From positions 1 to 31,055 of the IMG/VR virus record IMGVR_UViG_3300026253_000004: a stretch of 31,055 bases of DNA. One strand, given 5' to 3'. Source of the stretch: a virus. Made by a program: the position numbers and the translations under genes. The notes under the pieces are model-generated. The model saw nothing but the letters and a program-made list of their open reading frames with translations, searched no databases and was not told the origin of the DNA. Positions 107 to 30,865 of the stretch are shown piece after piece. Every line of letters starts with the position of its first letter. Position 1 is the first letter of the stretch.

Positions 107-2359
107 TTAAGTAATAGAAAGAAGCTTGTTTACATCAAATCTTAACGTCTGATTAGCTGTCCCAGCTTTTATTATTTCTATATTACCAGTTATAGTTGCT
201 ATTCTACTTGTATTTTCTATTGTTAATGTAATCCCGTTTTCTAAAGTTTGAACAGTATCCATTGTCCAATCACCATCACCAGTTGCTCCACCACCACTAG
301 TAATAAGTGGGCTTTGTACAGAAGAATCGATACCTATGCCACTAACTCTAGATATATTATTAATAACACCTTCTTTGCTATTAACGTCTATCACAGCGTG
401 AGCACTAGTAGCTTCTCTAGTTGTAGTTGTTGGAGCCGTTAACGCAATAGCCAGATTTGTAAACTTAACATCCCAACCATACACTCTTAGTATTTCATTT
501 TCACCATAACCCCCGATTTTTAAGGTAGTTCCACCAATAGCTAAAACTTGTTGTTTGTTAAAAATAATATTACCCTCTTGAACAGTAACCAACCCTTTTA
601 CTATTGTTGGCTTTTTACTTAGCGTATCTAAAGCAGGCCTTTCGTTTTTTATAATTATCTCCTCGTCTTCAGTATCAGGGAATATTGTTATTGTATCTTG
701 ATATTTCCCTACCACCGTATCCGTTGCAATATTATCTCCTGCAAGCACAATCATTCCTTCTTTTAGTTTATCAACATAATTATTTATAGGCCAACTATAA
801 TTCATTTGATTACTAAACGTCAGTGGTAAATCATCTGCTATAGATATTGATTCAGATATAGTAAAAGTTTTTTCACTACCCTCACTTACTGCAGTTACTG
901 TTACTGTAGTAGCAGCAAGCGCTGCGTTGCCTAATACTCTATCACCTACCGTCGCTATAGTACTTGAGACAACATGGGTTGTTACTGTTTGGCCAGTACT
1001 TGCTCCATTTACAGTAGTTCCTCCTTCTGAAGTCGAATCTGCCTCTGTGGTAATACTTGGATATATATTTTCTCCTGGTAATGCTACCGGGGCAGCGCCA
1101 ACCACTGGTTTAATAAAAGATAAAATATCGCTAGCTGCAGGCTGTTTTAAAATTCTATACGCAGCAACTACAGTAGCTGTACATGTAAGAGAGAAAGATG
1201 TCTTATCTTCGGATTTTCCTCTATTAGTAGAAACAGTAGCGGTTGCAAATGTACCTGTCACTGCCCCGCCAATACTATAACCCTGCATTGTTAATGTTAA
1301 ATCCTCATATTGATAAATAACTTTTTGTAATAATAAAGAACCAGAACCCGTAGATGAATTTATGTCGATGCTACCATCTCCAAACCTTACTTCATTATAA
1401 TTAGCGTGTTTCGTACCCGGTTCTGCAAATAAATAAATATCATATTGATTACCATCGTTATCACTAGGGAAAACTATATCACGCGAGTAAGACCCCTTCC
1501 GAATTTTCCCATTTTCTAATCTAGTTCTTATAGTTTGAAAAGTGTCGGTTACAAAGTTGTAATACTGACCAGCATCATTTTTAATCTCTAAACTAAAAGC
1601 AGCACCATCACTTCCCTTTACAGAGAAAGACCTAGTTTCGCCAGCTTGTTTTATATCCGATAAATCTAAATCAAAACTATTTATAGTTTTTGGAGCTGAT
1701 AATTTCCCAAAAGGGTCTGGTATGTTTGTCGGGTCATAACCCCGGCAATCTGAACAGTTTTCGAATTGGTTTGATTGAAAAGGCTGCTGTCTATAAGAAA
1801 ACATGGGCCAATTTCCAATATAGTTATTTTGGGAGTCAAGGGGTCGTAGATCCATTTTGCCTAATCCTTTATAAATATAACAATCTATTGAGTTATAGTC
1901 TTCAAAATCTACCCCAAAATCCTCCCAATCTCCTGGGGAAGCAAAAATTGTAGAACCACCTGTAAATCTTTGTCCAACTACACGTACAACATCACCCACA
2001 GAAGGTTGCCCTACTTGATTATAAAACATATTTAGCCAATGTGTATAACCCGCATGCGCGTTGGGTAAATAATAGTATGGTGGATTGGGATTTGGGGGTA
2101 GCGGGGTACCGTTTCGATATAGAATCTCAACCTCAGCCCCTACTAAATTTGATACCGAAGAAAGCCCCGGTGGTAATTTCTTACCGCATATCGCCCACTT
2201 ATGAACCATTGGACGGTTAGGAGATGTAGGATTTATAGGGGGACCAGTTGTTAACATAGAACTATTAGCCATAAGTGTTCCGTCTGGCATATAATGATAG
2301 CCAGGAGGAGCTATTTTTCCTTTAATCTTTATTTTACTAGGTTTATTGTGATATGCCAT
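107..2359 (-). CDS. Putative virion/tail-associated protein (750 aa)
   Basis: No enzymatic motif is visible. The N-terminus carries a Gly/Pro/Tyr-rich stretch (PPGYHYMPDGTLMANSSM, about residues 18-35) of a type I associate with late structural proteins of marine Bacteroidota phages. Residues about 60-230 are rich in Pro, Tyr and Trp with a CSDC pair near 202-205; from about 330 on the protein is Thr/Ser/Val-rich and looks like successive beta-strands, as in fibre or adhesin-like virion proteins. It is the last complete gene of the tail block, 12 nt after the 134 aa gene, which suits a tail accessory or fibre protein. There is no signal peptide. Function is inferred from position and composition only. 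The start at 2359 is supported by the short spacing to the upstream stop. Confidence 0.55.
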   Translation of the reverse strand: MAYHNKPSKIKIKGKIAPPGYHYMPDGTLMANSSMLTTGPPINPTSPNRPMVHKWAICGKKLPPGLSSVSNLVGAEVEILYRNGTPLPPNPNPPYYYLPNAHAGYTHWLNMFYNQVGQPSVGDVVRVVGQRFTGGSTIFASPGDWEDFGVDFEDYNSIDCYIYKGLGKMDLRPLDSQNNYIGNWPMFSYRQQPFQSNQFENCSDCRGYDPTNIPDPFGKLSAPKTINSFDLDLSDIKQAGETRSFSVKGSDGAAFSLEIKNDAGQYYNFVTDTFQTIRTRLENGKIRKGSYSRDIVFPSDNDGNQYDIYLFAEPGTKHANYNEVRFGDGSIDINSSTGSGSLLLQKVIYQYEDLTLTMQGYSIGGAVTGTFATATVSTNRGKSEDKTSFSLTCTATVVAAYRILKQPAASDILSFIKPVVGAAPVALPGENIYPSITTEADSTSEGGTTVNGASTGQTVTTHVVSSTIATVGDRVLGNAALAATTVTVTAVSEGSEKTFTISESISIADDLPLTFSNQMNYSWPINNYVDKLKEGMIVLAGDNIATDTVVGKYQDTITIFPDTEDEEIIIKNERPALDTLSKKPTIVKGLVTVQEGNIIFNKQQVLAIGGTTLKIGGYGENEILRVYGWDVKFTNLAIALTAPTTTTREATSAHAVIDVNSKEGVINNISRVSGIGIDSSVQSPLITSGGGATGDGDWTMDTVQTLENGITLTIENTSRIATITGNIEIIKAGTANQTLRFDVNKLLSIT

Positions 2360-2371
2360 TTATTATTTTAT

Positions 2372-2776
2372 TTATTTACTACTTTCAGAAAGTTCTGCCC
2401 CAACAGAGAATAGTTCTACTTTCTCCCTTGAATTATTTACAAATTTTATCTCCATATAATAACCAATTAGACTAGTGGTATTAGCTTTTTTATCTTTACT
2501 AAACGTTATAAAAGATCCCGGTTGAGGGGTTATTGGGTCTCCATTAGCGTTATACAAGTCACAAAGTACTGTTATGGTTGATATATCACCATTAGACAAG
2601 TCTGCGTTTACTATCTCAGTAATCTTACCTAATTCAATTGTAGTCGAAGTACTACCTGTACTATAAGCAGTAGATGAAGCCCCTATAGTACTGACAGGGG
2701 TATAATATACCATATCCCCAACTTGGGTTGATATATTTATAGCGGTGTTAAAGTCTAATGATAGTGCAAATGCCAT
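2372..2776 (-). CDS. Hypothetical small beta-rich virion protein (134 aa)
   Basis: A 134 aa protein starting MAFALSLDFN, with alternating hydrophobic/Ser-Thr patterns typical of a small beta-sandwich and no catalytic motif, membrane segment or cysteine cluster. It sits between the giant tail protein (16 nt upstream) and the 750 aa virion protein (12 nt downstream), so a tail or fibre-associated structural role is the simplest inference. I do not recognise a family. The 'MAF' start is also seen in the 240, 334 and 524 aa proteins of this operon, but here the likeness does not go beyond three residues. Confidence 0.45.
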   Translation of the reverse strand: MAFALSLDFNTAINISTQVGDMVYYTPVSTIGASSTAYSTGSTSTTIELGKITEIVNADLSNGDISTITVLCDLYNANGDPITPQPGSFITFSKDKKANTTSLIGYYMEIKFVNNSREKVELFSVGAELSESSK

Positions 2777-2792: not shown

Positions 2793-5700
2793 TTAAGATG
2801 ATGGTACAATAAATACCGTAGAATACGCCCAGCTTGAATAAACAGTCCCAGGAGAATCATCACATTGGGTTCTAACTCTGAATTGAAGCTCTGCATTAAC
2901 AGGATAAGAAACATTATTCCCTGAATATAGGGTTATTGTAGTAGTGCTAAGCCCAGTTGTTTGGTTAAACGTTAAGGCGCTTGGTAAAATGGTGTAAATA
3001 GTTGTCCATACCCCATTATTTATATCTACACCTAGAACCCCCACCTCATAAGTCAAAGCTTCACAAGCTTCCTTGAGGACTACATCAATCGTAACAGCAA
3101 AACCTGAAACTATTACCGCATTTTTAACGGTCACTGGAGTAGGGGAGGCGCAAGTTAAACAACAATTTCCATCATCACAAGTAGCAGATGCGTTATAATT
3201 TAATGCGGTTGGGTTAGTACAACCGTAATCTGTTAAGCAACTACTATCATCACAAGAAGCAGATGCGTCATAGTTACATGCTGTAGGATCAGTACAACCA
3301 AAAGTCCCATAACAAGAACCATCATCACATGTGGCTAATGAATTATAGTTACAATATGCTGGATCATCACAACCTAGAAGACCAACACAACTTCCATCAT
3401 CACAAGTAGCTGATGCATCATAGTTACATGCTGTAGGATCAGTACATCCATAAATAGTGTTACAAGAGCCATCGTCACATGTGGCGGATGAATTATAATT
3501 ACAAGCTGTAGTATCCATACAACCATAAACAGTATTGCAAGAACCATCATCACAGGTTGCTAATTGGTTATAATTACATGCATTTGGATTCGTACAACCC
3601 CAAACATAACTACACGAACCGTCATCACAAGTAGCTGTAGCATTATAATTACATGCTGTAATATCTGTACATCCATAAGCTGTTAAGCATGAACCATCAT
3701 CACAAGTAGCTGCAGAGTCATAATTACATGCTGTAGGGTCAGTACATCCATAGTCTGTTAAACAAGAGCCATCATCTACAGTGGCGTTTCCGTCATAATT
3801 ACATGCAGTTGGATCAGTACAACCAGGATAGACACATTGGGAGTCGTCAGGGAAATCAAAGGTACCACCATTCCCAGCAGCAGCATCATTACACCCTATA
3901 GTATAAGTTTGGCTGATGGCTTGTATTTGGCATGAAGTCGTCCCAAAAGAAGTAAAAGGATTAATCTCCCAGTCTACAGTAATGAAAGGGATTCCTATAG
4001 GCACTTGCATTACGCTGAAAGTTATATTTACATAATGCTCAGCAGGGGGATTTGTATGTACACCAAATTGTCCAGGTGAGGATGTTTTATCGTATATAAC
4101 TACTCCGTTATCATCTTTTACCTCTACATACATCTCGTAAGCATCAGGATATCCCAATGCATCAACACCCACAGAGTATGCGGTATTGAGAAGATCAACA
4201 CTTAATTTAACAATATTAGTATTAAAAGCACCACCTCCTCCTGGGTAGGTCCCTACTTGCTGGGATAATACTGGGCAATTATAAATACAACTCCCATCAT
4301 CAGTATTTGCTAATGAATTATAATTTGTAGCCGCATAACTAGTTGGATCGCTATTAAAAATTCCATTATTATCTAGCGTATCATCAGTACATCCATCTAC
4401 AACTGGAATACATGAACCATCATCGAAAGTTGCTAAAGGATTGTAGTTAAATGCTAAAGGATCTGTACAACCCCCTATAATAAGAGTAGTACAACTTCCA
4501 TCATCAGCGACATAAGCACTTCCCCCACTAGCTACTGCCACAAGATTTGTAGCATCCCAGCAGTCGTTACAATATTCCGTATAAGCCGCATCTTTACAAC
4601 CAGCACAAGTATCGTAGAAACATGAACCATCATCAGAAGTAGCTAATGGATCATAATTACAAGCTCCCCATGTTGTCATCGCCCCATAAACATCTACAGG
4701 TGTCATCCCAACAGCACCCAATGCCGTGTATGTTCCCGTATTATCTGTACAGCCAGGTATATCTGTAGTCGACACTGAATAAGTGTCTGTTATTCCGCTA
4801 GAGTTACTACAAACAAATCCAACTTCGAAAGTGTAATCAGTTCCTGCCGCTAAATTTATAGGAGGTGTGGTAGTGGAGAAACTTTGGAAACTACCACCGT
4901 CTATTGCCGTAATGTTACCTTGCCAGAATACAGCATTAGTATTAGTATCTGTAACTGTAAGGTAATAATCACCAGCAGCTTGAGGTTGATTTGTAGTAGG
5001 AGTATTCCATACTAAATCTAAACTTGTTGTTGTTATGTTTATAGCGTGTAACCCTGTTGTTTGTACACACCATTCACAACCATCGTAGAAAGGTTGTCCC
5101 GCAGCGGTAACGGCATCATCCCAATTATTAGCTGTTTGATCCCCACAGAATAAGCAAGTACCATCATTAATAGTCGCAAGTGGATCGTAAAGTGCCCCAG
5201 TGGACAATGTACAGCCATATATATCGTATGTACAAGAACCATTGTCAATATTCACCGTAGGGTCATAGTTAGAAGCTCCAGTGATACATTGGGTCCCAGT
5301 AGTATCGCAAGTTATAGTCCAATCATCCATGCAACCCGCAATAGATAGTATACAAGAACCATCATCAGTATTTGCAGTGGAATCGTAGTTAATATAAGTA
5401 TCATATACAAAATTACCATCAACAGTTTGAGCAGCGTTAGTACACCCTAAAACAGTTGCAATACAACTGCCGTCATCTACATTGGCATTCGGGTCGTAGT
5501 TGGTAACACTAGGATAAGCGTCGTCTGGAACGTCCATCATGGAATCATCCGTACAGCCAGGATAAGTACATGAACCATCATCAGTATTAGCCGCTGCATC
5601 AAAGTTAGAAGCATTAGGATCAATACAACCATAAACCTTTGCAATACAACTACCATCAGGTAAATCGGCATTAGGATTATAATTTAAAGCAGTACTATCC

Positions 5701-8700
5701 ATACAGCCAAATATACTTCCTATTGTAGCTTCTTGCAGTGACCCAATTCCTTGAATTGCAAAACTAGAGGTATCATAGTTTTCAACTACCCCTCCAGTAT
5801 TTTCATTGTGTGTTACCGAAAGACCTTTAATATAATTAAACCATTTCCCTTCTTTCTCTATAAATTCTGGAATTCTACCCTTTTCTTTATTTGTTTCTAT
5901 ATTCTCAACGTACCACCCTTTTTTATCTTCTAAGTTATAAAACTCATTATCATTATGAACCCCTGTTGGAGTTACTCCAAAAGCATCATAAGTAGTATAT
6001 TCTGTAAATTTGTTAACTTTAGATTGGCTACCTTCATAATTTAAAGTAGTAAACGATTTTATACTTCCAGGGAGTTCGTTTAATATAACAGTAAAACTTG
6101 AATCGCGCGGTAAGTAATAGAATGTATTTCTATCTACTGATTCATCATGATGCTTCCACAGTTTCCCATTTTTAAATGTATAATATTCATTAGCACAGCT
6201 GATAGCATTTTCAGGTATAAAAGATTTAAAACTAACCCAACCCTTAACATCCTCCCTAAATGAAACCGTTTTTGATGGAAAATCATTTGGATCTGCCGTT
6301 GTTGTCGTAGTCGTAGTAAAGCGATCTCCAGTAAAAGTAATGTGCAAAGATATACCGGCCGCAAAATTACATGCACTGTCACACATTATATTATTACTTA
6401 GTAGAATTACTAATTGTGCCCCACTATTATATACAGCAATAACCACTGTATCTGCGGGGAAAGCGTATCCAGATGTAGATGTCGTGACAGTGTCACCAAT
6501 TTGAATACCAATAATAGGTGTTCGTATTTCATTTCCAGGTGCGGATATTATATCCCCAAACCCTGTCCAACTAAAAGGGTTGTTAGTGGTAGTCTCTTCA
6601 GTAGCGAATGTTTGTTTACCTATCTCTTTTAGCGTTATATTATACTCGTCTTTTTTATCATCATAACTACCAATTAAAGTATTAGTTAACTTTAAATTAT
6701 CTTTAAACCAATCCTTCATGCCATGATTAGATATAGGTGTTAAGCCATCTCTTGATAATCTCATTACCACACCTCTAACTTTATCTGTAAAGTATACCCT
6801 ATAGTTTTCCGACGCGAATGATTCTGGGTTTTTAGATATACCAAATTCGCCTGAAAATGGTATTGCTTGCCCTAATACATTATTAGTCGATGTTAACTGT
6901 GAATTTCCATCCGCATTATATACCGCATCTTTATTAGCTAGTATCTTTAAAATCTTATCTTCACATAGTGTAATTAAATCAGAATCCCTAGAATGAAGTT
7001 TCTGAATACTACCGTAAGTAGGATTTATATCTTTTGTTATTTTTTCCCCCGCAATAAATTGATTCAAGTTATTTACTCCCGACGTAGAGTTATACAATCC
7101 GGAGTATATTAGTCCATATTTTCGATGTTCCTCCTTATATTGATCTGCTAAAGTCATAGAGACTTTAACTCCGTTTGTTATAAACGGTTTATTATAAGTA
7201 TCCCCAACACGATTAGATTCCACTCCATTATTAAAAGACCAACAATTAAACCAAGATAATGAAATACTTTCAGTCACTGGTATTATCTCTAATTTTACAA
7301 CTACATTAAAGCCAGTATTTACACCAGTCCCAAGCTCAAACGGGAAGCCATAATAGAGAGGTACATGCCCAGTTATAGAACTGCCATCAGGAGCAGTAAA
7401 CTTAAATAGTCCCCCAAGAACCTCCGCCAAAAGAACCTCATTTGATAAATGAAAATACTGTCCGTCAAATTGTGTTACAATGGTATCTACAGGGAATGTC
7501 CCGACACTCCCATCTAAGCTAAACGTAGAACCTATAGGAATAAAATCAGTAATATTATCATTCGTGATCTTCGTTGGTATCTTATTAGTTGCTTCATAAT
7601 ATATGTCAAGATCAACATCTTCTTTTGGCTCGGTTTCAAATATAGCTGGGTTTCTACTAATAAGGTTAGGTCCCTCAACTTCAAATGGTTCTACAAATTC
7701 TAGCTGCCCTTTAGTCGTCTTAGTTATTAGTTGCATTTTAGTATTTGTAGAAAGATCATCTGCTCCTTCGAATACTTCGTATTTTATCGTATATCTAAGC
7801 CTTTTATTATGTTCATCCATAATATCAACCAGTTGGGTATTGTAAGGATTATTCTGCAAAGACAAGTAGGCGGTATCGGTATTCGCAGGAAGTCCTAAGC
7901 TCAGCAATGCATAAAACTCAACACCACTATTAGTCACGCTATAAGTTACCCTCCCTCTATAGTTATATAGCCTTTCGGGATAAGCACCTGTAATAATATA
8001 AATAGTAGTGTCATCTTTTATTCGAAAATATTTCCCTGGTTTCAGGTTGTCTGTGATCCCAGCCTCCCCCTCGGTGTATGAATTAGAGCTATTACCTACA
8101 TTCCAATTTATATTGTGGTTAGGGGTCACGTTAGCTTTTAGCTCGGAGTATGATAAATGAAAAAATAAATCGGTACCGTCAGTATGTATTCCTTCGCTAA
8201 ATACTACCCCTTCACTTAGTCCTGTCCCATTATAACTGAGGACTGTGGAGAAGGAGTTCGGTATCGTGTTGTAGTTCCCAGTAAAACATCCATTTCCCCC
8301 AGTCTCACAGCCATCATCTCCATACGGTATACACCCTCCTCCACTTTGAGGGCAACAATTACCACAATATTCCGCTTCTTGGGAATACCAATCACCCGTA
8401 ACAGTCCACGACTGGTAGGAGGTGGTATCCGACCAGTCTGTCCCCGCGCCATCATCCGTGTTGGAGTTGAAAATATTATTATTATCACCTGGCTGCGTAC
8501 CAGCATAAGAGGTTTCGTCAATAAACCATTTTCCATGAGTATGGTCATCATCAAACTTTAGGTTTTCAACCCAATCATCATGTGTTTTACTTGCATCATT
8601 ACCCGTAGTACCATTTCCGCCACCAACGGCAGTAGCGTCATCGTCTGATAAGTAAAATAGGTCAGTAAATTCAGTAACTTTCCAATCCAAAGTAAGTTGT

Positions 8701-11474
8701 TTTTTAGATTTTACTTTATCCTCTATGATTAAATCCTCTTTTATTTTAACAAAAAACCTTCCATCAAATTCAGGTTTATTTAGAATTTCCTGTTTGAAAA
8801 AGTGTGGCTTTAATTGCCCACCATCTGCATAATTTGCCCATAAGTATCTTACTAACCAATCATCACTTTGGGGAATTACGGTACTTAAATGTACTACATA
8901 CAAACCATTAGTATCATCATCCTCAATGCTAGTTACTAGGTATCTACTAGATATACGCTTAGATTCCTCCCCAGTTAGGTCATCAACTTGTAGGTTTGAA
9001 AATACTACATATAAGTTGTCCTTTCCCATTCCTCCCATAAGTTCCGCAAGGTCATCTAATCCCATATGCTTCGAAGTGGAATCATATGCACTATTCCAAT
9101 GAGTCTTGTGTATTGTAAAAGAAGTATGGCCTACCCAAGGCGCTTCTGCGGGAGCAGATACAACACCACTAGTTCCACCAAATAGATTATATCCATTTAC
9201 GTGTTGATTTGGTTCCGCAAGTAAAGTATAGGTTGTTTTTATATAATCTGGTGCTTCATTCTCTATTGCTACAATTTTATATCTAGCTTCTTCCTCCACC
9301 GCCTCATCAAAATCAACTCCTTTCTTTAGTATAATATAAGTATCATCATCTACTTTATTTCTATCGACAGAAGGAAAAGAAAGCCAAACATTGCCATCTG
9401 CAGCGTCATATATCCTATCCATAGCCAAGTTGTAATATTCGTTGGAGGTTTCTTTTACAAATATTTTATAATAATCAGCCCATGATGGATGTTCGCTATT
9501 AAGCCCAATGTTTATTGAGCTTGAGGCTGTTGCGTATATTTTTGGAACTATTTGGGTTGCTGCTGGAGAAGTAAATACAGGGGTTTCCCTGCCATATTTA
9601 TCTCCATATACAACCCCAAAATTATATGTTCTTAAAGATTTTATAGATTTTTGTCCTACATTTCCATCTCCTTGGACTAATCTAACATTTATGTTAGCCT
9701 CAATCATAGGAGTATAGATATCCCCTAAGGAGGTTGTAAGATTGTAACCTTGAACATAATTAGCATAGATAATTCTATTCCCGGTCACCTCTTGTGCTAA
9801 CGCTGTTTTAGGCACGTTATCCCAAACTCTTATTATTTGATTAGAAGGTAACTGTGCATATATATTTTCTGTAGTTATATCATAAGATCCACGTAAACTA
9901 CTTTGGGATCCCGAGGCTTCCCAAGCAGCATCATTTTTGGTTATACTTTTTATAACGTATATATTTGGGGCTGTTTCATTTTTATATAATAAATCAACTT
10001 GAACGACATCTTTTGGTATATCTGAAGGTATAAAATCTTGTAAAGTTAATTCTTTTAAATTATTAACCATTCCTTTATTAAAAGCTTCGGTCGGATGATA
10101 ACTAAAATGCCCGGGAATAAAGGCAACTTCTGAAAAAGGCCCTATTGTAGAGTATTCATTGTCTTCATATTTATATCGGCAAGCAAATCTAGGAAATTTA
10201 CGCTCGAATAAATCATGACCTTCTTCTTCCAGGGCGATCTCATATACCACTAAACCTACCGGGTTTTCACTTGATAATGTCACTATAGTTACCTTCAATG
10301 TCATCCCCCCTCCATATGTAATATCGGTAATTACTACTCGCGCTGTATAATTTTCTGGGGGAAGTTGTCCCACTCCCGATTCCATTAATCGAAGAGTATC
10401 TCCTATTTCAAAGTTAGGGGGGGACCCAAAGATATCATCTTCAACAGTTATCCACATAGAGAATCCCTCTTCAAATAGCACATTACTGGCATTGGCAAAA
10501 TTAACATCCCCGGTTATTCCACTAATAATTCCCTCTCTAATGGAAGTTAACTTTGACAATGTAGGGGGTTTTACCGGTCCTTTTTTAATAACAGTTATAT
10601 GTTCCTCTTTTATTAACCCCTTGTTTGCCCCTTCAACAAATAATATAGTATGGTGAAGTCCATCATTATTAGTACCGTAATCACATCTTGGTATATTTAT
10701 TTTTTTAGGCTCTGTTATTCCATCTGTCCATAATAGTAAATCGTCAATAATATTTATACCAGTAATTACCTTACTAGCGTTAAACTGTAATACTCTATCC
10801 GTAGAGCTTGTGAATTTCGTGTAAGCAGAATTCATTAAGGTCATTAATATAGGCGATGTTAGATTACCTGTACTAATAGTAATATGAGTAGCACTAATCG
10901 CGGTTACCTCTACTTCTAGTCCAGTAAAAAAAGAACTTGAAAAAGAAAAGGAAGTAATTATATCCCCCACAGCAAATACGGGGGAGACCAATGGGATACT
11001 TACGCCAGTAAGAACAAGATTAGTCATTATCCCTGTAGGGAGAACAGTTGAATATCCTGCTTTATAGTAAATATCCGCAAAAATAACGCTTATTTGGTCT
11101 TCTTTATACTCTAATATGTAGTCACTAACTGGATTTGAATAAAAATCCTCCGTTTCTCCGGTCGGCGGTGGTCCAAGTGGCCCCTCTACTTGTAATTCTA
11201 CAGGGAAGTGTCCGGCAATAAACCAGTATAATGCATCGGTTTTCTCATCAGCAATACTACCAATACAGGTATCCTCATTTTTTAGGAAACTAGTATTGCT
11301 ATTATCACTAATTAACTTATTACCTAGTATATTTTGGATAGTTCCTACGTCTCCTCCCTCTGAAGTAGAAACTTGTATATTCATTGCATCTCTGTACTCT
11401 CCGTTGGGAACAAGTCTCTCATCAACATCCTTGTTCATTTTACCACCGGTAAACTGATGTTTAATCTCTGGCAT
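2793..11474 (-). CDS. Giant tail nozzle-like protein with C-terminal DDGSC repeat array (2893 aa)
   Basis: Residues 1 to about 1900 look like a tail nozzle/tubular or stabilisation protein of podoviruses: the N-terminal motif FTGGKMNKDVDERLVPNGEY (residues 8-27) and later blocks such as GRIPEFIEKEGKWFNYIKG (about 1865-1884) are, as I recall, hallmarks of this marine phage family. A cysteine cluster (YCGNCCPQSGGGC and following, about 1035-1066) interrupts it. From residue 1923 the character changes: about 20 units of the form GC-D-x-A-NY-x-A-DDGSC follow, the last nine perfectly spaced at 25 residues (2551-2771). They are interleaved with beta-sandwich (FN3-like) stretches near 2140-2240 and 2400-2520, and a final one at about 2775-2893. 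Such acidic Cys repeats resemble calcium-binding thrombospondin type 3-like repeats. It follows the 291 aa adaptor by 3 nt. Inference: nozzle at the tail tip fused to a host-binding adhesin. Confidence 0.65.
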   Translation of the reverse strand: MPEIKHQFTGGKMNKDVDERLVPNGEYRDAMNIQVSTSEGGDVGTIQNILGNKLISDNSNTSFLKNEDTCIGSIADEKTDALYWFIAGHFPVELQVEGPLGPPPTGETEDFYSNPVSDYILEYKEDQISVIFADIYYKAGYSTVLPTGIMTNLVLTGVSIPLVSPVFAVGDIITSFSFSSSFFTGLEVEVTAISATHITISTGNLTSPILMTLMNSAYTKFTSSTDRVLQFNASKVITGINIIDDLLLWTDGITEPKKINIPRCDYGTNNDGLHHTILFVEGANKGLIKEEHITVIKKGPVKPPTLSKLTSIREGIISGITGDVNFANASNVLFEEGFSMWITVEDDIFGSPPNFEIGDTLRLMESGVGQLPPENYTARVVITDITYGGGMTLKVTIVTLSSENPVGLVVYEIALEEEGHDLFERKFPRFACRYKYEDNEYSTIGPFSEVAFIPGHFSYHPTEAFNKGMVNNLKELTLQDFIPSDIPKDVVQVDLLYKNETAPNIYVIKSITKNDAAWEASGSQSSLRGSYDITTENIYAQLPSNQIIRVWDNVPKTALAQEVTGNRIIYANYVQGYNLTTSLGDIYTPMIEANINVRLVQGDGNVGQKSIKSLRTYNFGVVYGDKYGRETPVFTSPAATQIVPKIYATASSSINIGLNSEHPSWADYYKIFVKETSNEYYNLAMDRIYDAADGNVWLSFPSVDRNKVDDDTYIILKKGVDFDEAVEEEARYKIVAIENEAPDYIKTTYTLLAEPNQHVNGYNLFGGTSGVVSAPAEAPWVGHTSFTIHKTHWNSAYDSTSKHMGLDDLAELMGGMGKDNLYVVFSNLQVDDLTGEESKRISSRYLVTSIEDDDTNGLYVVHLSTVIPQSDDWLVRYLWANYADGGQLKPHFFKQEILNKPEFDGRFFVKIKEDLIIEDKVKSKKQLTLDWKVTEFTDLFYLSDDDATAVGGGNGTTGNDASKTHDDWVENLKFDDDHTHGKWFIDETSYAGTQPGDNNNIFNSNTDDGAGTDWSDTTSYQSWTVTGDWYSQEAEYCGNCCPQSGGGCIPYGDDGCETGGNGCFTGNYNTIPNSFSTVLSYNGTGLSEGVVFSEGIHTDGTDLFFHLSYSELKANVTPNHNINWNVGNSSNSYTEGEAGITDNLKPGKYFRIKDDTTIYIITGAYPERLYNYRGRVTYSVTNSGVEFYALLSLGLPANTDTAYLSLQNNPYNTQLVDIMDEHNKRLRYTIKYEVFEGADDLSTNTKMQLITKTTKGQLEFVEPFEVEGPNLISRNPAIFETEPKEDVDLDIYYEATNKIPTKITNDNITDFIPIGSTFSLDGSVGTFPVDTIVTQFDGQYFHLSNEVLLAEVLGGLFKFTAPDGSSITGHVPLYYGFPFELGTGVNTGFNVVVKLEIIPVTESISLSWFNCWSFNNGVESNRVGDTYNKPFITNGVKVSMTLADQYKEEHRKYGLIYSGLYNSTSGVNNLNQFIAGEKITKDINPTYGSIQKLHSRDSDLITLCEDKILKILANKDAVYNADGNSQLTSTNNVLGQAIPFSGEFGISKNPESFASENYRVYFTDKVRGVVMRLSRDGLTPISNHGMKDWFKDNLKLTNTLIGSYDDKKDEYNITLKEIGKQTFATEETTTNNPFSWTGFGDIISAPGNEIRTPIIGIQIGDTVTTSTSGYAFPADTVVIAVYNSGAQLVILLSNNIMCDSACNFAAGISLHITFTGDRFTTTTTTTADPNDFPSKTVSFREDVKGWVSFKSFIPENAISCANEYYTFKNGKLWKHHDESVDRNTFYYLPRDSSFTVILNELPGSIKSFTTLNYEGSQSKVNKFTEYTTYDAFGVTPTGVHNDNEFYNLEDKKGWYVENIETNKEKGRIPEFIEKEGKWFNYIKGLSVTHNENTGGVVENYDTSSFAIQGIGSLQEATIGSIFGCMDSTALNYNPNADLPDGSCIAKVYGCIDPNASNFDAAANTDDGSCTYPGCTDDSMMDVPDDAYPSVTNYDPNANVDDGSCIATVLGCTNAAQTVDGNFVYDTYINYDSTANTDDGSCILSIAGCMDDWTITCDTTGTQCITGASNYDPTVNIDNGSCTYDIYGCTLSTGALYDPLATINDGTCLFCGDQTANNWDDAVTAAGQPFYDGCEWCVQTTGLHAINITTTSLDLVWNTPTTNQPQAAGDYYLTVTDTNTNAVFWQGNITAIDGGSFQSFSTTTPPINLAAGTDYTFEVGFVCSNSSGITDTYSVSTTDIPGCTDNTGTYTALGAVGMTPVDVYGAMTTWGACNYDPLATSDDGSCFYDTCAGCKDAAYTEYCNDCWDATNLVAVASGGSAYVADDGSCTTLIIGGCTDPLAFNYNPLATFDDGSCIPVVDGCTDDTLDNNGIFNSDPTSYAATNYNSLANTDDGSCIYNCPVLSQQVGTYPGGGGAFNTNIVKLSVDLLNTAYSVGVDALGYPDAYEMYVEVKDDNGVVIYDKTSSPGQFGVHTNPPAEHYVNITFSVMQVPIGIPFITVDWEINPFTSFGTTSCQIQAISQTYTIGCNDAAAGNGGTFDFPDDSQCVYPGCTDPTACNYDGNATVDDGSCLTDYGCTDPTACNYDSAATCDDGSCLTAYGCTDITACNYNATATCDDGSCSYVWGCTNPNACNYNQLATCDDGSCNTVYGCMDTTACNYNSSATCDDGSCNTIYGCTDPTACNYDASATCDDGSCVGLLGCDDPAYCNYNSLATCDDGSCYGTFGCTDPTACNYDASASCDDSSCLTDYGCTNPTALNYNASATCDDGNCCLTCASPTPVTVKNAVIVSGFAVTIDVVLKEACEALTYEVGVLGVDINNGVWTTIYTILPSALTFNQTTGLSTTTITLYSGNNVSYPVNAELQFRVRTQCDDSPGTVYSSWAYSTVFIVPSS
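3162..3824 (-). repeat. Nine coding tandem repeats, 75-bp period
   Basis: Nine consecutive units encode GCTDPTACNYD-x4-CDDGSC followed by a 4-residue linker, each exactly 25 codons (8 x 75 + 63 = 663 nt). The first unit has V in place of the third Cys; the next seven carry four cysteines each; the last (GCTNPTALNYN...CDDGNC) has lost the second. The DNA copies are clearly similar but not identical (for example 'catcatcaca' and 'acatgctgta' recur). They are in frame inside the giant tail protein, so this is a protein repeat and not a CRISPR array. Confidence 0.9.
3825..5708 (-). repeat. Dispersed, diverged DDGSC repeats and beta-sandwich inserts
   Basis: About a dozen degenerate units of the same family lie upstream of the regular array in the same protein, starting at residue 1923 (FGCMDSTALNYNPNADLPDG). 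They keep the terminal Cys and usually the D-D/N-G-S/T-C end, but spacing varies because of insertions such as DDSMMDVPDDAYPSV. Most have two cysteines instead of four. Two longer spacers, about 2140-2240 and 2400-2520, look like FN3-type domains. The pattern suggests an old, diverged set with a younger amplified block at the C-terminal side. Confidence 0.75.
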
Positions 11475-11477
11475 GTA

Positions 11478-12353
11478 CTAGTGTTTTATTTGTTTCGATT
11501 TACCTCTTAAAATTTGAGTAAGTTCTTCTAGCTTAAGATTTGATAATCTTAATTTTGCAGTTCTTATAGCTGCAAATCTTTCTTTTTTAAATCTATTAAC
11601 TTGATACTCTGGAATATTTGCTTTCCCAGCAAGGATCGCATGAGATATCCATTTATACATTGCTTCCTCCGCAAATTTATGAACTTGCATTTCACCGTCT
11701 GTTCCAAGACTATCGCTTATATAATCTAAGATTACAGTTTCTCCACTAATATTAGAACTAAAATGTATTTTTCCTGAATGACAATCTATATAAAAAGATC
11801 CGTTCACTTGAGCGTGTTGAGGATCCAGTCCAAACCTCGAGCCGTCCATCGGCCAATAAGCATCATCATCATATTGGTTTTGGTTTTCGGATGGTGTTCC
11901 TGACTTATAATTCGACCAAGCCGTAGATTCGTGGTTTTCAATAATATTATTAGTAGTAGCATTGAAAATATAGTCCCCGTCCGCATATTGTTTGAGACTT
12001 CTTGGATTAGAAGTTTTTATAGCAGGATATAATAAGTGTTTTATACCAGCAGAATCTACCCAGCTAATTTTAGTATAGTTTACATAGTCTTGTGGTAGTA
12101 TCATTTGTAAAGACGCGGGCAGTATAATCTCTTGGGATTTGCATGACTTAAAGGTGTCAAAAGATAATTCTGCTAAGGCTCTCTGGGCATGGAAAGCTAC
12201 ATCTAATCTTTTAGCTTTTGAAATTATCTTATCTTCACCAACATATACTAGCATAAATTGAGTTATAATATCATCTAAAGAAGTAAATTGATAATTACCA
12301 AAATCATCTCCAGTATAATATTCTTCTTGAGTTATGTCATCTAATAATCCCAT
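11478..12353 (-). CDS. Head-tail adaptor / tail tubular A-like protein (291 aa)
   Basis: This 291 aa protein precedes the nozzle-like gene by 3 nt and follows the 239 aa gene by 4 nt, the place where short-tailed phages encode the adaptor or gp11/gp4-like ring protein. Visible blocks are an N-terminal helical part with AFHAQRALAELSFDTFKS (about residues 53-70), a central strand-rich part (PQDYVNYTKISWVDSAGI, about 87-104) and a C-terminal helical part (KFAEEAMYKWISHAILAGKA, about 226-245). The helix-strand-helix layout fits tail tubular A/adaptor proteins, which sit between portal and nozzle. The assignment rests on position and general resemblance. No catalytic motif is present. Confidence 0.55.
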   Translation of the reverse strand: MGLLDDITQEEYYTGDDFGNYQFTSLDDIITQFMLVYVGEDKIISKAKRLDVAFHAQRALAELSFDTFKSCKSQEIILPASLQMILPQDYVNYTKISWVDSAGIKHLLYPAIKTSNPRSLKQYADGDYIFNATTNNIIENHESTAWSNYKSGTPSENQNQYDDDAYWPMDGSRFGLDPQHAQVNGSFYIDCHSGKIHFSSNISGETVILDYISDSLGTDGEMQVHKFAEEAMYKWISHAILAGKANIPEYQVNRFKKERFAAIRTAKLRLSNLKLEELTQILRGKSKQIKH

Positions 12354-12357
12354 TTAT

Positions 12358-13077
12358 TTATTGTTTTTCTTGTTGAACTTGCGACATTTCCATACCTTGG
12401 CCAGCCCTCATAATATCGGCTCTCTGCATAGCTACACCCGCAAATTTTAATATTTTATAAACTAGTTCTGTTTCTTCTGAAGGGTGAAGTTCAAAATTAG
12501 TGGTCTTTTGGGGATTTGGATCGTACAAAGCTTTTTCGTTAATAACTACATATCCCCATGACACCGTTGTTGGACGTCTAAAATAGAAAACTCCAGTAGG
12601 AGTAATGAAATCATCCCCTGCTACAACCCTCATTATACCACGTCTAATATTAGCAATAGGCCTTGTTATACTTGGTCTTGTTAAAGGGCCTCCCCGTCTA
12701 GCCTCATTAAAATCTTTTGTTTTTAATATCTCACAATTAATATTATTAAATTCTATTCTATGAACTCTATAAATATAATTCGGAAGTACTTTATTAATAC
12801 CTCCACCCCCTGCCCCTGTATAACCACTTACAACAACCGTTCCATCAGTATTTTCAAAGACTTGTATCTTTTCCTCAAGCATGTCATCTATGTCAGCATA
12901 CACATAATCATTCCCTGGTACTCTTGCTGCTTGGTTTAAATCATAAAAATATTGTTCAAATATTTCTAACTGTGCTTGATTAGCAAATAAGTTAAACTCC
13001 TGAGGAGTTATATATCCTCTTTGTTCTTTATTAGCGAACGCTAAAACTCTTTGATATACTGTGTCTATATTTACCAT
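12358..13077 (-). CDS. Putative connector/ring structural protein (239 aa)
   Basis: The N-terminus (VYQRVLAFANKEQRGYITPQ, residues 7-26, then EFNLFANQAQLEIFEQYFYD) is helical and of a type I recognise from conserved structural proteins of marine Bacteroidota podoviruses. The middle is beta-rich with a Gly-rich loop (GYTGAGGGGINK, about 84-95), and the C-terminus is Gln-rich (MSQVQQEKQ). It is encoded directly before the adaptor, so a ring or connector between portal and tail is a reasonable inference. No enzyme motif is present. The start at 13077 lies 9 nt after the stop of the 53 aa gene. Confidence 0.5.
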   Translation of the reverse strand: MVNIDTVYQRVLAFANKEQRGYITPQEFNLFANQAQLEIFEQYFYDLNQAARVPGNDYVYADIDDMLEEKIQVFENTDGTVVVSGYTGAGGGGINKVLPNYIYRVHRIEFNNINCEILKTKDFNEARRGGPLTRPSITRPIANIRRGIMRVVAGDDFITPTGVFYFRRPTTVSWGYVVINEKALYDPNPQKTTNFELHPSEETELVYKILKFAGVAMQRADIMRAGQGMEMSQVQQEKQ

Positions 13078-24001: not shown

Positions 24002-24415
24002 TTAATGATTTCCATTATTTGCATCATTCTCCCAAGGGAATTCCGTACCCCCAGCTTCAACCCATTCCCCATTATAGAGTATCATATCAGCCCCATCGAT
24101 AGTTTGCCTAGGGTAGATTATACCATCATATTCTACGTCATTATCAGAATATTTTAGTTTACCTAGCTTTATATCAGTAGCGTGGCGCATCTCATGTACT
24201 ATCACTTGTGTTTCTTCCTCTCCACCCGGGATTAGTTGGTCACTAATATAAATACTTCCATCCATATTAGCTTCACCTAAGACACCTTCTTCAAGTGGGA
24301 CTCTAATAATAGGTGTACCAGGAATAGAAGGCTCCTCACGTTTAAAACGTAATTTACTTTTTACTTCACCATTGCTGGCTTGTAAACCTCTTTCTCTACC
24401 TAGTTTAAACCCCAT
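24002..24415 (-). CDS. HExxH putative zinc metalloprotease (137 aa)
   Basis: The block QVIVHEMRHATDIKLGKL contains HEMRH (H74-E75-H78), the zinc-binding/catalytic signature of metallopeptidases. The following acidic positions (E120 in WVEAGG, E125, E129) are candidate third ligands, so a gluzincin-like arrangement is possible; which one binds zinc cannot be decided. The N-terminus is basic (KSKLRFKREEPSIPG) and the protein has no signal peptide, so it would act in the cytoplasm or the virion unless exported by the holin. It is TAATG-coupled to the 25 aa gene and adjacent to the holin, so it could serve in lysis or in virion maturation. Substrate unknown. Confidence 0.6.
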   Translation of the reverse strand: MGFKLGRERGLQASNGEVKSKLRFKREEPSIPGTPIIRVPLEEGVLGEANMDGSIYISDQLIPGGEEETQVIVHEMRHATDIKLGKLKYSDNDVEYDGIIYPRQTIDGADMILYNGEWVEAGGTEFPWENDANNGNH

Positions 24416-25364: not shown

Positions 25365-25622
25365 TTATTCCACTAAGACTACATCTCTAGCTTGTATAAC
25401 ATGATAAAGGGTATCCTTCCACGTTATGCCATGGCCAGCATGTTTGTCATAATATATTGTATCCCCGTCTTCTAACCCTTCGGCTAAATTTCCAGCGGAT
25501 ATTATCTTTGCTTTTAAATACCGGTTATCAACATCAGTATCATCTGTCATTATAAGACCAGCTACCTTTTTAGGTTCAGTCTTAAGCTTGTCTACTATTA
25601 TATAGTTATTAATTGCTTTCAT
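25365..25622 (-). CDS. groES: GroES-type co-chaperonin (85 aa)
   Basis: An 85 aa protein with the linear order of GroES: opening strand NNYIIVDKL (5-13), flexible loop EPKKVAGLIMTDDTD (16-30) containing the hydrophobic triplet L-I-M expected to dock on GroEL, strand LKAKIISAG (36-44), LEDGDTIYYDKHAGHGITWK (50-69) and last strand TLYHVIQARDVVLVE (71-85). GroES caps the GroEL ring and creates the folding chamber; bacterial versions have 94-97 residues, so this one is short, mainly in the roof region, as in other phage co-chaperonins. Its ATG overlaps the end of groEL by 14 nt, so the two are translationally coupled, in the inverse of the bacterial order. Confidence 0.88.
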   Translation of the reverse strand: MKAINNYIIVDKLKTEPKKVAGLIMTDDTDVDNRYLKAKIISAGNLAEGLEDGDTIYYDKHAGHGITWKDTLYHVIQARDVVLVE

Positions 25623-27174
25623 TCATTCTCATATTTGAAATTACACAATCTGCAGATATTATAGTAGATACAACACTTACTGCATTCTTAAGAGCGGACT
25701 TGGTTACAAGTACCGGATCTATCACTCCAGCCTCAATCATATTGATTCTCTTACCGGTTATAGCGTCTATACCGAAGCCCTCGTGGTCTTCATACCCGTT
25801 AGCCACACTTATACCAGCATTATGTAGTATTGTTTCAAACGGTGCTCGTATTGCATTTAACAGTATCTTTTCACCAATACTTTCAGACTTTACATATTGG
25901 GAAGCATTCAACAGTGCGATACCACCGCCTGGAACAATACCTTCTTTAAGAGCAGCTTTAGTCGCATAGATAGCATCTTCAATCCGATCTTTCTTTTCCT
26001 TTAGCTCAACCTTAGAATCAGCGCCTACTTTCACCATTCCAACAGAGCCAGATAGCATTGCTAACCTTTGCTGCAGTTTCTTCTTAATAAAAGGGTTTTT
26101 GTCTTCTTTATCAATTAACTTCTGTATACTCTTTACTCGCTCTTCTAATTCTCCCTCTGGAGTCTCTATAGTTAATACAGTATTCTTGTCTTCAGTAATA
26201 GCAGTATAAGCCTCACCTAAGCAGTCTATGTTAATTAAATCTAAGTCATCACCTAATTGTTCGTTAATAACCTTCGCTCCAACTAAGAACGCTAAATCTT
26301 CAACTGTGTCTTGCTTAGTAGGACCAAAGCCTGGTAAGTCAATGATATTAACTTTTATATTACCTTTGACTTTGTTCATAAGCAATGCAGCTTTAACTTG
26401 TTGTTCTACTGGAGCTACAATAAGTAAGGAACGCTTATCCTTAATAACATGTTCTAATATTGTCTGAATCTTCCTTATGTTAGGTATTTCCGAATATACT
26501 ATTAATACTAATGGATTATCAAGTTCACATACTTGCTTATCCTTATCAGTAACGAAATGTGGTGATGTGAGTCCTGAATCTACTTGCACACCATCGACTA
26601 TCTCGACGTATGTTTCTTCAGTTGGAGATTCCTCCATTAATACCACCCCATCTTTACCTACTTTAGTATAAGCTTCTGCTATAATCTTTCCAAGCTCTTC
26701 GTCGTTATTACAACTTATAGAGCTTACGGATTTTAGCATATCACCTTCGATCTTTACGGAAACTTTGTCTAGGTAAGCATTTACCTTTTTAAGGCCGGAC
26801 TTAATCCCGTCTTTAATTTCCCTAATAGTTTCTTTGCTAGTATTTACTTCTTTTAACAATGATTCGGCAAGGACGGTAGCTGTCGTAGTACCGTCACCTG
26901 CTTCTCTCACTGTATTTCTAGCAGCTTCTTTAATAAGGGTTGCGCCCATATTTTCAACCGGGTCAAATAAGACAACAGATTCTGCTACTGTTACACCGTC
27001 TTTTGTTATGACCGGGAGTCCTCTGGCATCTTCGTATATAACGCATTTACCAGATGCTCCTAAGGTTGACTTTACTGCTTTTGCTAGTTTTTCAACACCA
27101 GCTATTATTTTACTCTTTGCGTCATCGCCAAAGGATAAGTCCTTGACAATCTCGCTTGGTTGATTGTATTCCAT
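25609..27174 (-). CDS. groEL: GroEL chaperonin (521 aa)
   Basis: It matches the GroEL family over its full length. ATP-binding and hydrolysis residues are in place: D59 in VITKDGVTVA (equivalent to E. coli D52), D94 in GDGTTTATVLAE (equivalent to D87) and D400 in RIEDAIYATKAALKEGIVPG (equivalent to D398). The apical domain (about 190-375) has hydrophobic surface helices (LVLIVYSEIPNIRKIQTILE, SLLIVAPVEQQVKAALLMNK). The C-terminus stops at MRMNESN without the Gly-Gly-Met tail of bacterial GroEL, and 521 residues is shorter than the usual 540-550. Encoded by a phage, it probably folds virion proteins of this operon or replaces the host chaperonin; host origin by past transfer is an inference. 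Start at 27174, 35 nt after the 100 aa gene. Confidence 0.96.
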   Translation of the reverse strand: MEYNQPSEIVKDLSFGDDAKSKIIAGVEKLAKAVKSTLGASGKCVIYEDARGLPVITKDGVTVAESVVLFDPVENMGATLIKEAARNTVREAGDGTTTATVLAESLLKEVNTSKETIREIKDGIKSGLKKVNAYLDKVSVKIEGDMLKSVSSISCNNDEELGKIIAEAYTKVGKDGVVLMEESPTEETYVEIVDGVQVDSGLTSPHFVTDKDKQVCELDNPLVLIVYSEIPNIRKIQTILEHVIKDKRSLLIVAPVEQQVKAALLMNKVKGNIKVNIIDLPGFGPTKQDTVEDLAFLVGAKVINEQLGDDLDLINIDCLGEAYTAITEDKNTVLTIETPEGELEERVKSIQKLIDKEDKNPFIKKKLQQRLAMLSGSVGMVKVGADSKVELKEKKDRIEDAIYATKAALKEGIVPGGGIALLNASQYVKSESIGEKILLNAIRAPFETILHNAGISVANGYEDHEGFGIDAITGKRINMIEAGVIDPVLVTKSALKNAVSVVSTIISADCVISNMRMNESN

Positions 27175-29453: not shown

Positions 29454-29455
29454 AG

Positions 29456-30460
29456 TTATTTATTTAGATAAAATCTCCCTTTACGATCTGTAGGTCCATA
29501 TTCCTTACTCCCAGGGGCTAGGTGCTCTCCGTACTTTTCGGTAAACTCAGTTTGACTTCCTTCCCATACTATTCTGCCTGCTTGGTCCCTTAGGTTTATT
29601 TCAGATTTCCCATCTTCCCCCTTAATGTAGCTCCCCCCACGTTTCCCCTTCATTTCTGTAGTAAAGTACTCGGAGTTATTTTTAACCAATTCGTAAGGAG
29701 GGGCTTTCTTCAGCTCCACCTCAGTGAGTGCATCTTTTACTTCCAGGTTCTTAATCTTAATCATCCCCGCCATTGTAGTGGGTTTTATAGGTACCCTCCC
29801 TGGTTTTACTTGTTCAGCTGTGTTTTCATAAAAATAATCAAGCAAGGCTCCTCTCTTTAGTTTCCTTTTTCCTGTTGGGTAAATTCCAGTTTTCTTTAAT
29901 TCATCGTCTAAAGCCTTACCTTCTTTTATTAACTCAACCCCCTTCATTGTTGCTTCAACACATTCCCCATGAGCGCCCGCCATAAACCCCTTTCCACATC
30001 CTGGATCATCATAGCCCGGATCAATAAAGTCCTCTCCTGCCCCAGATATCAATTCTCCCTCTGAATTCCACACCGAAGTATTTTTCTTGTAATATTCCTG
30101 TCGAGTTTTTAACTCCTTCATTTTCCCCAAAAGCTTTTTAGTACCTTTGGTTTTAGTATCTATACCCTTGTTATATAAATCATCAATAATTACAGCTTGA
30201 TTATAAGCAGCTGTCGAATCGCTATGTGCTTGTAGTTTTTCTTCGTACTCAGCCATAACCCTAGCATTATATTCCTCCGTAGTCTCTTCCTTGGCACCAC
30301 CAACTTTTACTTCCGGAAGGAGGATACCCGCCGGGTCTTTGTCCTCCCTCATTGGGGACTTAGATAAGAAGGGTGAATTACTCTTATGTATGCCATCTCC
30401 ACCAGCTCCGCTATCCTGCAATCCTGTAGCGGTGAATTTCTTTTTCATGTTAAATGCCAT
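29456..30460 (-). CDS. Uncharacterised protein with MAFNMKK start (334 aa)
   Basis: A 334 aa protein: MAFNMKKKFTATGLQDSG, then Gly/Asp-rich linker with KSNSPFLSKSPM, a helical part (AEYEEKLQAHSDSTAAYNQA, about 70-89), GYDDPGCGKGFMAGAHGECV (about 149-168, two cysteines about 12 apart) and a C-terminal half with GRVPIKPTTMAGMIKIKNLE and AGRIVWEGSQTEFTEKYGEH. I do not recognise a family. It overlaps neither neighbour: 2 nt to the 524 aa gene downstream and 2 nt to the basic protein upstream. Start region (plus-strand 30446-30461) is identical over 16 nt to the start region of the next gene, which may reflect an old duplication of the leader. Confidence 0.45.
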   Translation of the reverse strand: MAFNMKKKFTATGLQDSGAGGDGIHKSNSPFLSKSPMREDKDPAGILLPEVKVGGAKEETTEEYNARVMAEYEEKLQAHSDSTAAYNQAVIIDDLYNKGIDTKTKGTKKLLGKMKELKTRQEYYKKNTSVWNSEGELISGAGEDFIDPGYDDPGCGKGFMAGAHGECVEATMKGVELIKEGKALDDELKKTGIYPTGKRKLKRGALLDYFYENTAEQVKPGRVPIKPTTMAGMIKIKNLEVKDALTEVELKKAPPYELVKNNSEYFTTEMKGKRGGSYIKGEDGKSEINLRDQAGRIVWEGSQTEFTEKYGEHLAPGSKEYGPTDRKGRFYLNK

Positions 30461-30462
30461 AA

Positions 30463-30771: not shown

Positions 30772-30780
30772 TGTATAATT

Positions 30781-30792
30781 CATATGCATATG
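30781..30792. promoter_or_regulatory. 12-bp palindrome catatgcatatg before the first gene
   Basis: A perfect 12-bp palindrome, 9 nt upstream of the chosen start (30771), and 6 bp from a CACGTG palindrome (30795-30800). This position is suited to an operator or other protein-binding site. I found no clear Bacteroidota -7 box (TAnnTTTG) near it, so a promoter is not shown. Confidence 0.3.
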
Positions 30793-30865
30793 ATCACGTG
30801 GTAATAACTCAATTTAAAATATGTTGTAAATATTGAGGTGATGGGCAACATATAGGTATATAGAG

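What the first reader, a model, noticed from the sequence alone, without database searches (positions are those of the whole stretch)
2793..11474. Tail nozzle-like protein fused to a giant adhesin-like repeat region
A protein whose N-terminal two-thirds look like a podovirus nozzle/tubular protein continues without a break into about 20 DDGSC repeats and FN3-like domains. Such repeats are a hallmark of secreted or surface proteins of marine Bacteroidota. Fusing host-type surface domains to the tail tip suggests receptor binding by mimicry or by Ca-dependent attachment. At 2893 residues it takes more than a quarter of the window.
Basis: partly seen in the sequence, partly recalled or inferred. 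Interest (0 to 1): 0.7.

Follow-up and report, generated by a model that had tools for sequence, protein, structure and literature searches.

The report
Phage tail muzzle with adhesin arm
A marine phage's tail-tip gate protein (a crassvirus-type muzzle) carries a 960-residue arm of cysteine-rich repeats of a kind otherwise found mostly in secreted proteins of marine Bacteroidota; relatives carry such arms at two different sites and with different tips, which suggests an exchangeable device for gripping host cells.

Summary
Window 2793-11474, minus strand, is one uninterrupted 2893-aa ORF: residues 1-1929 tail protein, then 20 DDGSC-type repeats with an FN3 domain between blocks and beta-rich domains elsewhere. 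It is not an assembly join: about 20 other contigs show the same junction.

The nozzle reading is right in kind. The closest known family is the crassvirus muzzle (phicrAss001 gp44), whose ring-joining domain and propeller resemble the T7 nozzle. Relatives pass Pfam cut-offs for crAss_MUZ and crAss_MUZ_C, and a model of the phi38:1 homologue hits the solved muzzle first. The repeats are host-type: the 80 best genome hits are all Bacteroidota.

New here: the arm sits between the muzzle core and a small terminal domain. That domain is fused to the muzzle in arm-less relatives but is a separate gene, 2-29 bases downstream, in nearly all armed ones. Another clade carries DDGSC modules after residue ~270, again splitting the muzzle gene. 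Tips vary: internalin-like LRR, Lcl_C-like, beta-sandwich. The arm comes and goes on the muzzle tree.

Best explanation: an exchangeable adhesin arm (stalk plus tip) on the tail tip for host attachment. Muzzle identity ~95% sure; adhesin role ~60%; Ca dependence untested.

The parts
2793..11474 (-). Whole gene: muzzle/nozzle plus adhesin-like arm, 2893 aa
   Evidence: Open frame; relatives in 79 viral loci
5688..11474 (-). Muzzle core, residues 1-1929; conserved blocks 1-1616 and 1734-1929
   Evidence: PHROG 14478 'virion structural protein' E 3e-126; homologous to phi38:1 gp097 and other flavophage virion proteins; relatives pass Pfam crAss_MUZ and crAss_MUZ_C cut-offs; homologue model hits phicrAss001 muzzle 7qok/7qol
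6597..7268 (-). Best conserved block (residues 1403-1626), propeller part
   Evidence: PHROG best stretch; beta-propeller hits over the corresponding part of the homologue model
5826..6134 (-). crAss_MUZ_C-like stretch (residues 1781-1883)
   Evidence: Pfam PF25729 E 3.3e-5, 24.7 bits, just under the cut-off of 27; relatives reach 31-68 bits
10660..10675 (-). Second insertion site used by a sister clade (about residue 270)
   Evidence: DDGSC module and gene split at q264-271 in L031, L039, L043, L044, L046, L047, also L171, L174
5154..5708 (-). DDGSC block 1, six units (residues 1923-2107)
   Evidence: first ~60 residues of the tail model at pLDDT 82-92
4767..5063 (-). FN3 domain (residues 2138-2236)
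4287..4754 (-). DDGSC block 2, four units (residues 2241-2396)
3897..4277 (-). Beta-rich domain of unknown kind (residues 2400-2526)
   Evidence: sequence; model confidence low
3162..3896 (-). DDGSC block 3, ten units, mostly 25-aa tandem with four cysteines each (residues 2527-2771)
2796..3149 (-). C-terminal beta-sandwich-like tip (residues 2776-2893)
   Evidence: predicted strands, low confidence; the tip is the part that differs most between relatives
2372..2776 (-). Separate 134-aa gene = terminal domain of the muzzle in arm-less relatives
   Evidence: HMM built from fused C-terminal domains and this ORF; fused in L006, L024, L029, L030, L035, L036, phi38:1; separate directly downstream in armed relatives; PHROG 18548 spans both this ORF and muzzle residues 1735-1826
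107..2359 (-). Further tail gene, 750 aa, homologous gene next to the muzzle in relatives (in some it lies between muzzle and terminal domain)
   Evidence: match to L170 E 8e-168; C-terminal similarity to L026/L038 ORFs by eye
11478..13077 (-). Two upstream virion genes (291 aa and 239 aa), probably ring/connector proteins by synteny
   Evidence: PHROG 13977 and 14543 virion structural proteins; same order in phi38:1; ring role inferred

Best explanation
The gene encodes a crassvirus-type tail muzzle, the gate at the tip of a short tail (hexameric in phicrAss001), extended by a modular adhesin arm. SHOWN: homology of residues 1-1929 to the muzzle family; the DDGSC/FN3 arm and its Bacteroidota character; the arm's position between the core and a terminal domain that becomes a separate gene; a second insertion site near residue 270; different tips in relatives; gain or loss along the tree. 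INFERRED: the virion carries one arm per muzzle subunit (six if the stoichiometry of phicrAss001 holds); the DDGSC blocks are a disulfide-rich stalk; the end domain (here a beta-sandwich) is the ligand-binding head; the arm touches the outer surface of a Bacteroidota host first and brings the muzzle to the envelope, where gate opening releases DNA. A free C-terminus, obtained by ending the chain and restarting the remaining domain as its own gene, would let a long arm hang off the muzzle without breaking its fold.
For: Muzzle: Pfam crAss_MUZ 58-61 bits and crAss_MUZ_C 31-68 bits in relatives, cut-off 27; homologue model best PDB match 7qok_A E 1.3e-11, VIA Z 15.3/14.9 against 9.4 for the next, itself a phage portal-tail protein; relatives infecting Cellulophaga and Tenacibaculum are podoviruses (PMC8776804); synteny with phi38:1. 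Host-type arm: the 80 best of 258 confirmed genome hits are all Bacteroidota; many of the bacterial carriers begin with a signal-peptide-like stretch (by eye). Adhesin logic: core conserved but arm variable (window versus L002: 74% identity in core columns, 33% in the arm); tips differ: LRR in L004 (Pfam LRR_4 1.8e-7; internalin J model 8.5e-11, far under its cut-off), Lcl_C-like in L007 (7e-6) shared with L011 and L027 (36% identity) although L027 lies in another muzzle clade. Site and fission. Turnover: DDGSC present/absent needs at least 4 changes; L004 (arm) and L006 (no arm, fused terminal domain) are sisters at 100/98. In phicrAss001 the distal muzzle is proposed to contact the cell surface (PMC10172136).
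Against: No binding, host-range or virion data exist for this phage; neither the arm nor its tip has a characterised relative. The window protein itself misses the Pfam MUZ_C cut-off narrowly (24.7 of 27), so membership rests on relatives. The homologue model has mean pLDDT 51.7 and the arm model 54. Some unrelated phages carry DDGSC repeats in other giant proteins, so the repeat need not be muzzle-specific. Phage proteins fold in a reducing cytosol, so a 71-cysteine arm would have to oxidise late; phicrAss001 tails do contain disulfides (PMC10172136), which makes this possible, not shown.
Confidence: 0.6

Rival explanations
1. Passive spacer: the DDGSC/FN3 arm is mainly a stiff extension that holds other tail fibres or bridges a thick capsule, with no ligand of its own.
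For: Repetitive, length-variable (3-14 motif copies across phage carriers) and partly tandem array; muzzle reach through capsule is discussed for phicrAss001.
Against: Tips are distinct, non-repetitive and of types known from binding proteins, LRR and Lcl_C-like.
Confidence: 0.2
2. Low-affinity environmental sticking: the arm holds the particle to polysaccharide gels, mucus-like exopolymer or particles where Bacteroidota live, rather than to a specific receptor, as proposed for Ig-like domains on other phages (own knowledge).
For: FN3 domain present; host proteins with the same repeats look secreted.
Against: Position at the gate of the tail, not on the capsid, favours a step close to ejection.
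Confidence: 0.15
3. Homotypic mimicry: phage DDGSC repeats bind the host's own DDGSC proteins.
For: Same repeat consensus in phage and bacteria position by position, up to 75% identity.
Against: No evidence that DDGSC repeats self-associate; no identical 20-mers shared among the sampled units.
Confidence: 0.08
4. Assembly artefact or chance frame.
For: None beyond the unusual length.
Against: Same junction in about 20 contigs from many metagenomes; conserved downstream gene order.
Confidence: 0.01

Closest known systems
phicrAss001 muzzle protein gp44 (PDB 7QOK/7QOL; Pfam crAss_MUZ, crAss_MUZ_C)
   Same: Homologous core by Pfam through relatives and by fold through the phi38:1-type model; end of the tail gene block; length variation by insertions is reported there too (PMC10172136).
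   Different: gp44 is about 1360 residues as modelled and ends near its MUZ_C region; no DDGSC/FN3 arm; no split of the gene reported.
Cellulophaga phage phi38:1 gp097 (Callevirus, Pervagoviridae) and homologues in phi18:3, Gundel, Panino, elemo phages
   Same: Same gene position and order; core homologous at 32-38% identity over matched parts; phi38:1 ends with the same terminal domain.
   Different: 1324 aa, terminal domain fused, no repeats.
DDGSC-repeat proteins of Flavobacteriales, Chitinophagales and Saprospiraceae
   Same: Same 20-21 residue unit with invariant cysteines at both ends.
   Different: Bacterial proteins appear secreted with T9SS- or dockerin-like ends (by eye); the phage protein has no such start and is a virion protein by homology.
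T7 gp12-type nozzle
   Same: gp44's ring-joining domain and seven-blade propeller are stated to resemble it (PMC10172136).
   Different: No direct similarity tested here; no arm.

Membership tests
Crassvirus muzzle protein | Sequence match to crAss_MUZ / crAss_MUZ_C above curated cut-off | tested here: inconclusive
   Window protein: MUZ_C 24.7 bits against 27, MUZ not listed. Homologues Gundel, L185 and phi38:1 pass.
Crassvirus muzzle protein | Muzzle fold (ring-joining domain, 7-blade propeller, IG domains) | tested here: met
   For the phi38:1-type homologue (residues 125-1324): top hits 7qok/7qol, E 1.3e-11, Z 15.3. The window protein itself was not folded whole; low model confidence.
Crassvirus muzzle protein | Hexameric assembly at the tail end | not testable with these tools
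   Needs cryo-EM.
Order Crassvirales | Phylogenetic placement by TerL, portal and MCP | not tested
   Closest isolates are Pervagoviridae/Pachyviridae flavophages; order membership is not claimed.
DDGSC repeat of Bacteroidota secreted proteins | C-x5-x-x-[YF]-x5-x-DDGSC unit with flanking cysteines | tested here: met
   12 window units fit the strict pattern; consensus agrees position by position with 961 bacterial units.
DDGSC repeat of Bacteroidota secreted proteins | Disulfide pairing | not testable with these tools
   In bacteria cysteines 8 and 16 of the unit co-occur (odds ratio 8.4), suggesting a second bond, but the units are not independent.
Fibronectin type III | FN3 fold | tested here: met
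   Residues ~2138-2236: only FN3/Ig-like matches, best Z 7.2; Pfam 21.9 bits against cut-off 25. Modest strength.
Calcium-binding adhesin repeats | Calcium ligation | not testable with these tools
   Acidic DD motif only; no match to a known Ca-binding repeat family in Pfam.

The most novel reading that the evidence does not exclude
In a large uncultured lineage of flavobacterial podoviruses the muzzle is a docking platform for exchangeable adhesins captured from host secretome modules: arms with different heads are swapped in and out at two fixed sites, and each insertion ends the chain and restarts the remainder as its own gene, so that the muzzle is assembled from two or three polypeptides.
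Probability: 0.4. Interest if true: 0.7.

Novelty: new variant of a known kind. Interest (0 to 1): 0.52.

Why it matters
It names a candidate host-range determinant for a widespread uncultured group of marine phages related to crassviruses, in which the receptor-binding parts are mostly unknown, and places it on the gate protein itself rather than on a separate fibre. The repeated insertion with gene fission shows a simple evolutionary route by which a structural tail protein gains a long free arm. The DDGSC repeat is common in marine Bacteroidota secretomes, yet the text search in the open-access library found no paper that treats it.

Tried and rejected
Direct sequence search of the PDB with the window protein, with phi38:1 gp097 and with two profiles gave no muzzle hit; the link came only through Pfam on relatives and through folds. 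Assembly artefact: rejected by recurrence. Diversity-generating retroelement behind the Lcl_C-like tips: no reverse transcriptase found in 22 partial records, which as fragments do not exclude one. Homology of the 134-aa ORF to phi38:1 gp098 (similar length, same position): rejected; it matches the end of gp097 instead. Idea that the terminal domain is always separated by the DDGSC arm: rejected, since L021, L026, L028 and L038 have it separate without an arm, with another tail gene between. NCBIfam gave nothing for the window arm or the 750-aa protein. VIA listed no match for the DDGSC units themselves; that is no evidence of a new fold. Literature searches for DDGSC, nozzle extensions and flavophage adhesins gave nothing relevant.

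Full report
What is there. The window is a 31,055-base virus record with its long genes on the minus strand: chaperonins, terminase, portal, capsid and tail genes in order. The ORF at 2793-11474 (minus) is 2893 aa without interruption. Residues 1-1929 carry few cysteines; from residue 1923 on there are 20 GC...DDGSC units in three blocks, an FN3 domain at about 2138-2236 and two further beta-rich segments. The last block is a 75-bp tandem array.

What the N-terminal two-thirds is. PHROG 14478 (virion structural protein) matches at E 3e-126. tblastn finds the gene in Cellulophaga, Tenacibaculum, Maribacter and Flavobacterium phages, always within residues 1-1930 and never in the arm. phi38:1 has the same gene order, and its homologue gp097 is 1324 aa. 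Pfam crAss_MUZ_C hits the window protein just under its cut-off (24.7 of 27 bits), but phi38:1, Gundel, L185, L066, L028 and L026 all exceed it, and Gundel and L185 also exceed the cut-off of crAss_MUZ. A model of phi38:1 gp097 residues 125-1324, though of low confidence (mean pLDDT 51.7), has the phicrAss001 muzzle as its first PDB match by a wide margin (Foldseek 1.3e-11 against 1.5e-3 for the first other protein; VIA Z 15.3 and 14.9 against 9.4 for the next, which is a phage portal-tail protein). The muzzle of phicrAss001 is a hexamer at the tail end whose ring-joining domain and propeller resemble the T7 nozzle, which gates ejection and whose distal domain is thought to touch the cell (PMC10172136). 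So 'nozzle-like' is correct and 'crassvirus-type muzzle' is more exact.

What the arm is. A scan of 84,980 prokaryote genomes with six repeats gave 258 confirmed places, of which the 80 best are all Bacteroidota: Flavobacteriales, Chitinophagales, Saprospiraceae and Cryomorphaceae. Many of those bacterial proteins begin with a signal-peptide-like stretch and end in T9SS-like or dockerin-like sequences; this was judged by eye, not by HMM. Phage and bacterial units share their consensus position by position. In bacteria the two inner cysteines of the unit co-occur (283 both, 300 neither, 349 and 29 one only; odds ratio 8.4), as expected of a second disulfide, though units within a protein are not independent. 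The window's last block is mostly the four-cysteine form.

How the arm is placed. Mapping relatives onto the window protein gives a conserved core q1-1616 and q1734-1929. After q1929 about 20 relatives have a cysteine- and DDGSC-rich tail; others end there or have a domain of about 120 residues ending '...GYYANVKFENNSxxKVELFAVSAEVTESSK'. An HMM built from those fused domains together with the window's 134-aa ORF (2372-2776) finds it fused to the muzzle in L006, L024, L029, L030, L035, L036 and phi38:1, none of which has DDGSC repeats. It finds it as a separate ORF in every arm-bearing relative whose downstream sequence is held. In 20 of those 21 listed loci the start codon lies 2-29 bases after the arm's stop; L005 and L012 look like one virus, and the exception, L020, has it 3 kb downstream. 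In the window the gap is 16 bases. PHROG 18548 independently spans muzzle residues 1735-1826 and the 134-aa ORF. Separation is not unique to armed phages: L021, L026, L028 and L038 have it without an arm, with another tail gene between.

A second site. In L031, L039, L043, L044, L046 and L047, one clade with full support, and in L171 and L174, the first ORF holds muzzle residues 1 to about 270 followed by a cysteine-rich module (DDGSC in all but L039) and then stops; the rest of the muzzle is a second ORF. L171 has DDGSC repeats in both places. L043 also has a separate 771-aa DDGSC ORF next to the muzzle. Residue 265 corresponds to phi38:1 residue 154, which lies near gp44 residue 150-160 by the structural alignment and so near the start of IG1 (163-292); this mapping is approximate.

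Turnover and tips. On a tree of the core, DDGSC presence needs at least 4 changes, and the C-terminal arm at least 5 that starred branches force; gain and loss cannot be told apart without a root. L004 (arm) and L006 (no arm, fused terminal domain) are sisters at 100/98. The core is 74% identical between the window and L002, the arm 33%. Tips differ: L004 has leucine-rich repeats (Pfam LRR_4 1.8e-7; best NCBIfam model internalin J, 8.5e-11 but far under its cut-off). L007 has an Lcl_C-like domain (28.9 bits of 34.9) shared at 36% identity with L011 and L027, although L027 belongs to another muzzle clade. The window ends in a beta-sandwich-like segment of unknown kind.

How it most likely works. 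Shown: family, arm, position, fission, turnover and different tips. Inferred: each muzzle subunit carries one arm; the DDGSC blocks are a disulfide-rich stalk; the head binds a surface component of a Bacteroidota host; contact brings the muzzle to the envelope. Ending the chain and restarting the last domain as its own gene would give the arm a free end while the muzzle keeps that domain. The host is probably a flavobacterium, because all isolates with the core infect Flavobacteriia and the arm is of Bacteroidota type. A phage record assigned to Kyanoviridae and several unrelated viral contigs carry similar repeats in other proteins, so the module is not strictly confined to this family.

Limits. 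No virion, host or binding data exist; both structure models are weak; the window is a partial genome; signal peptides and secretion signals were not scored; counts of relatives are limited to the best 80 loci and include near-duplicates.

Verdict. A real feature, correctly spotted, of a known kind (muzzle plus adhesin modules) in a new arrangement. Interest 0.52; novelty: new variant of a known kind.

Noticed in passing
25365-27174 (-): The phage encodes both GroEL (521 aa, Pfam Cpn60 174 bits) and GroES (85 aa, Cpn10 34.7 bits); phi38:1 also has GroES upstream of its terminase and a GroEL detected in its virions (PMC13288928).
   Followed up: partly
28000-31000: G+C rises to 0.42-0.44 against about 0.36 elsewhere, over two low-complexity, charged ORFs (524 and 334 aa) with near-identical starts MAFNM[NK]K and no Pfam match.
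   Followed up: no
24002-24415 (-): 137-aa ORF with an HEMRH motif, suggestive of a small metallopeptidase, but no Pfam match.
   Followed up: no
L164, L172, L179, L181: Large proteins (1800-3040 aa) with DDGSC repeats in viral contigs that show no match to this window's tail and head genes: the repeat module is spread among unrelated phages.
   Followed up: partly
L043:17994-20306: A free-standing 771-aa DDGSC ORF with 53 cysteines directly after the split muzzle genes.
   Followed up: no
L004:15977-18298: Muzzle arm ending in internalin-like leucine-rich repeats.
   Followed up: partly
11478-12353 (-): The upstream virion protein is 291 aa here but 439-457 aa in several relatives (L165, L166, L170, L171, L174).
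   Followed up: no
L049-L064: In another group of relatives the muzzle is split near residue 1400 into two ORFs, without DDGSC repeats.
   Followed up: no
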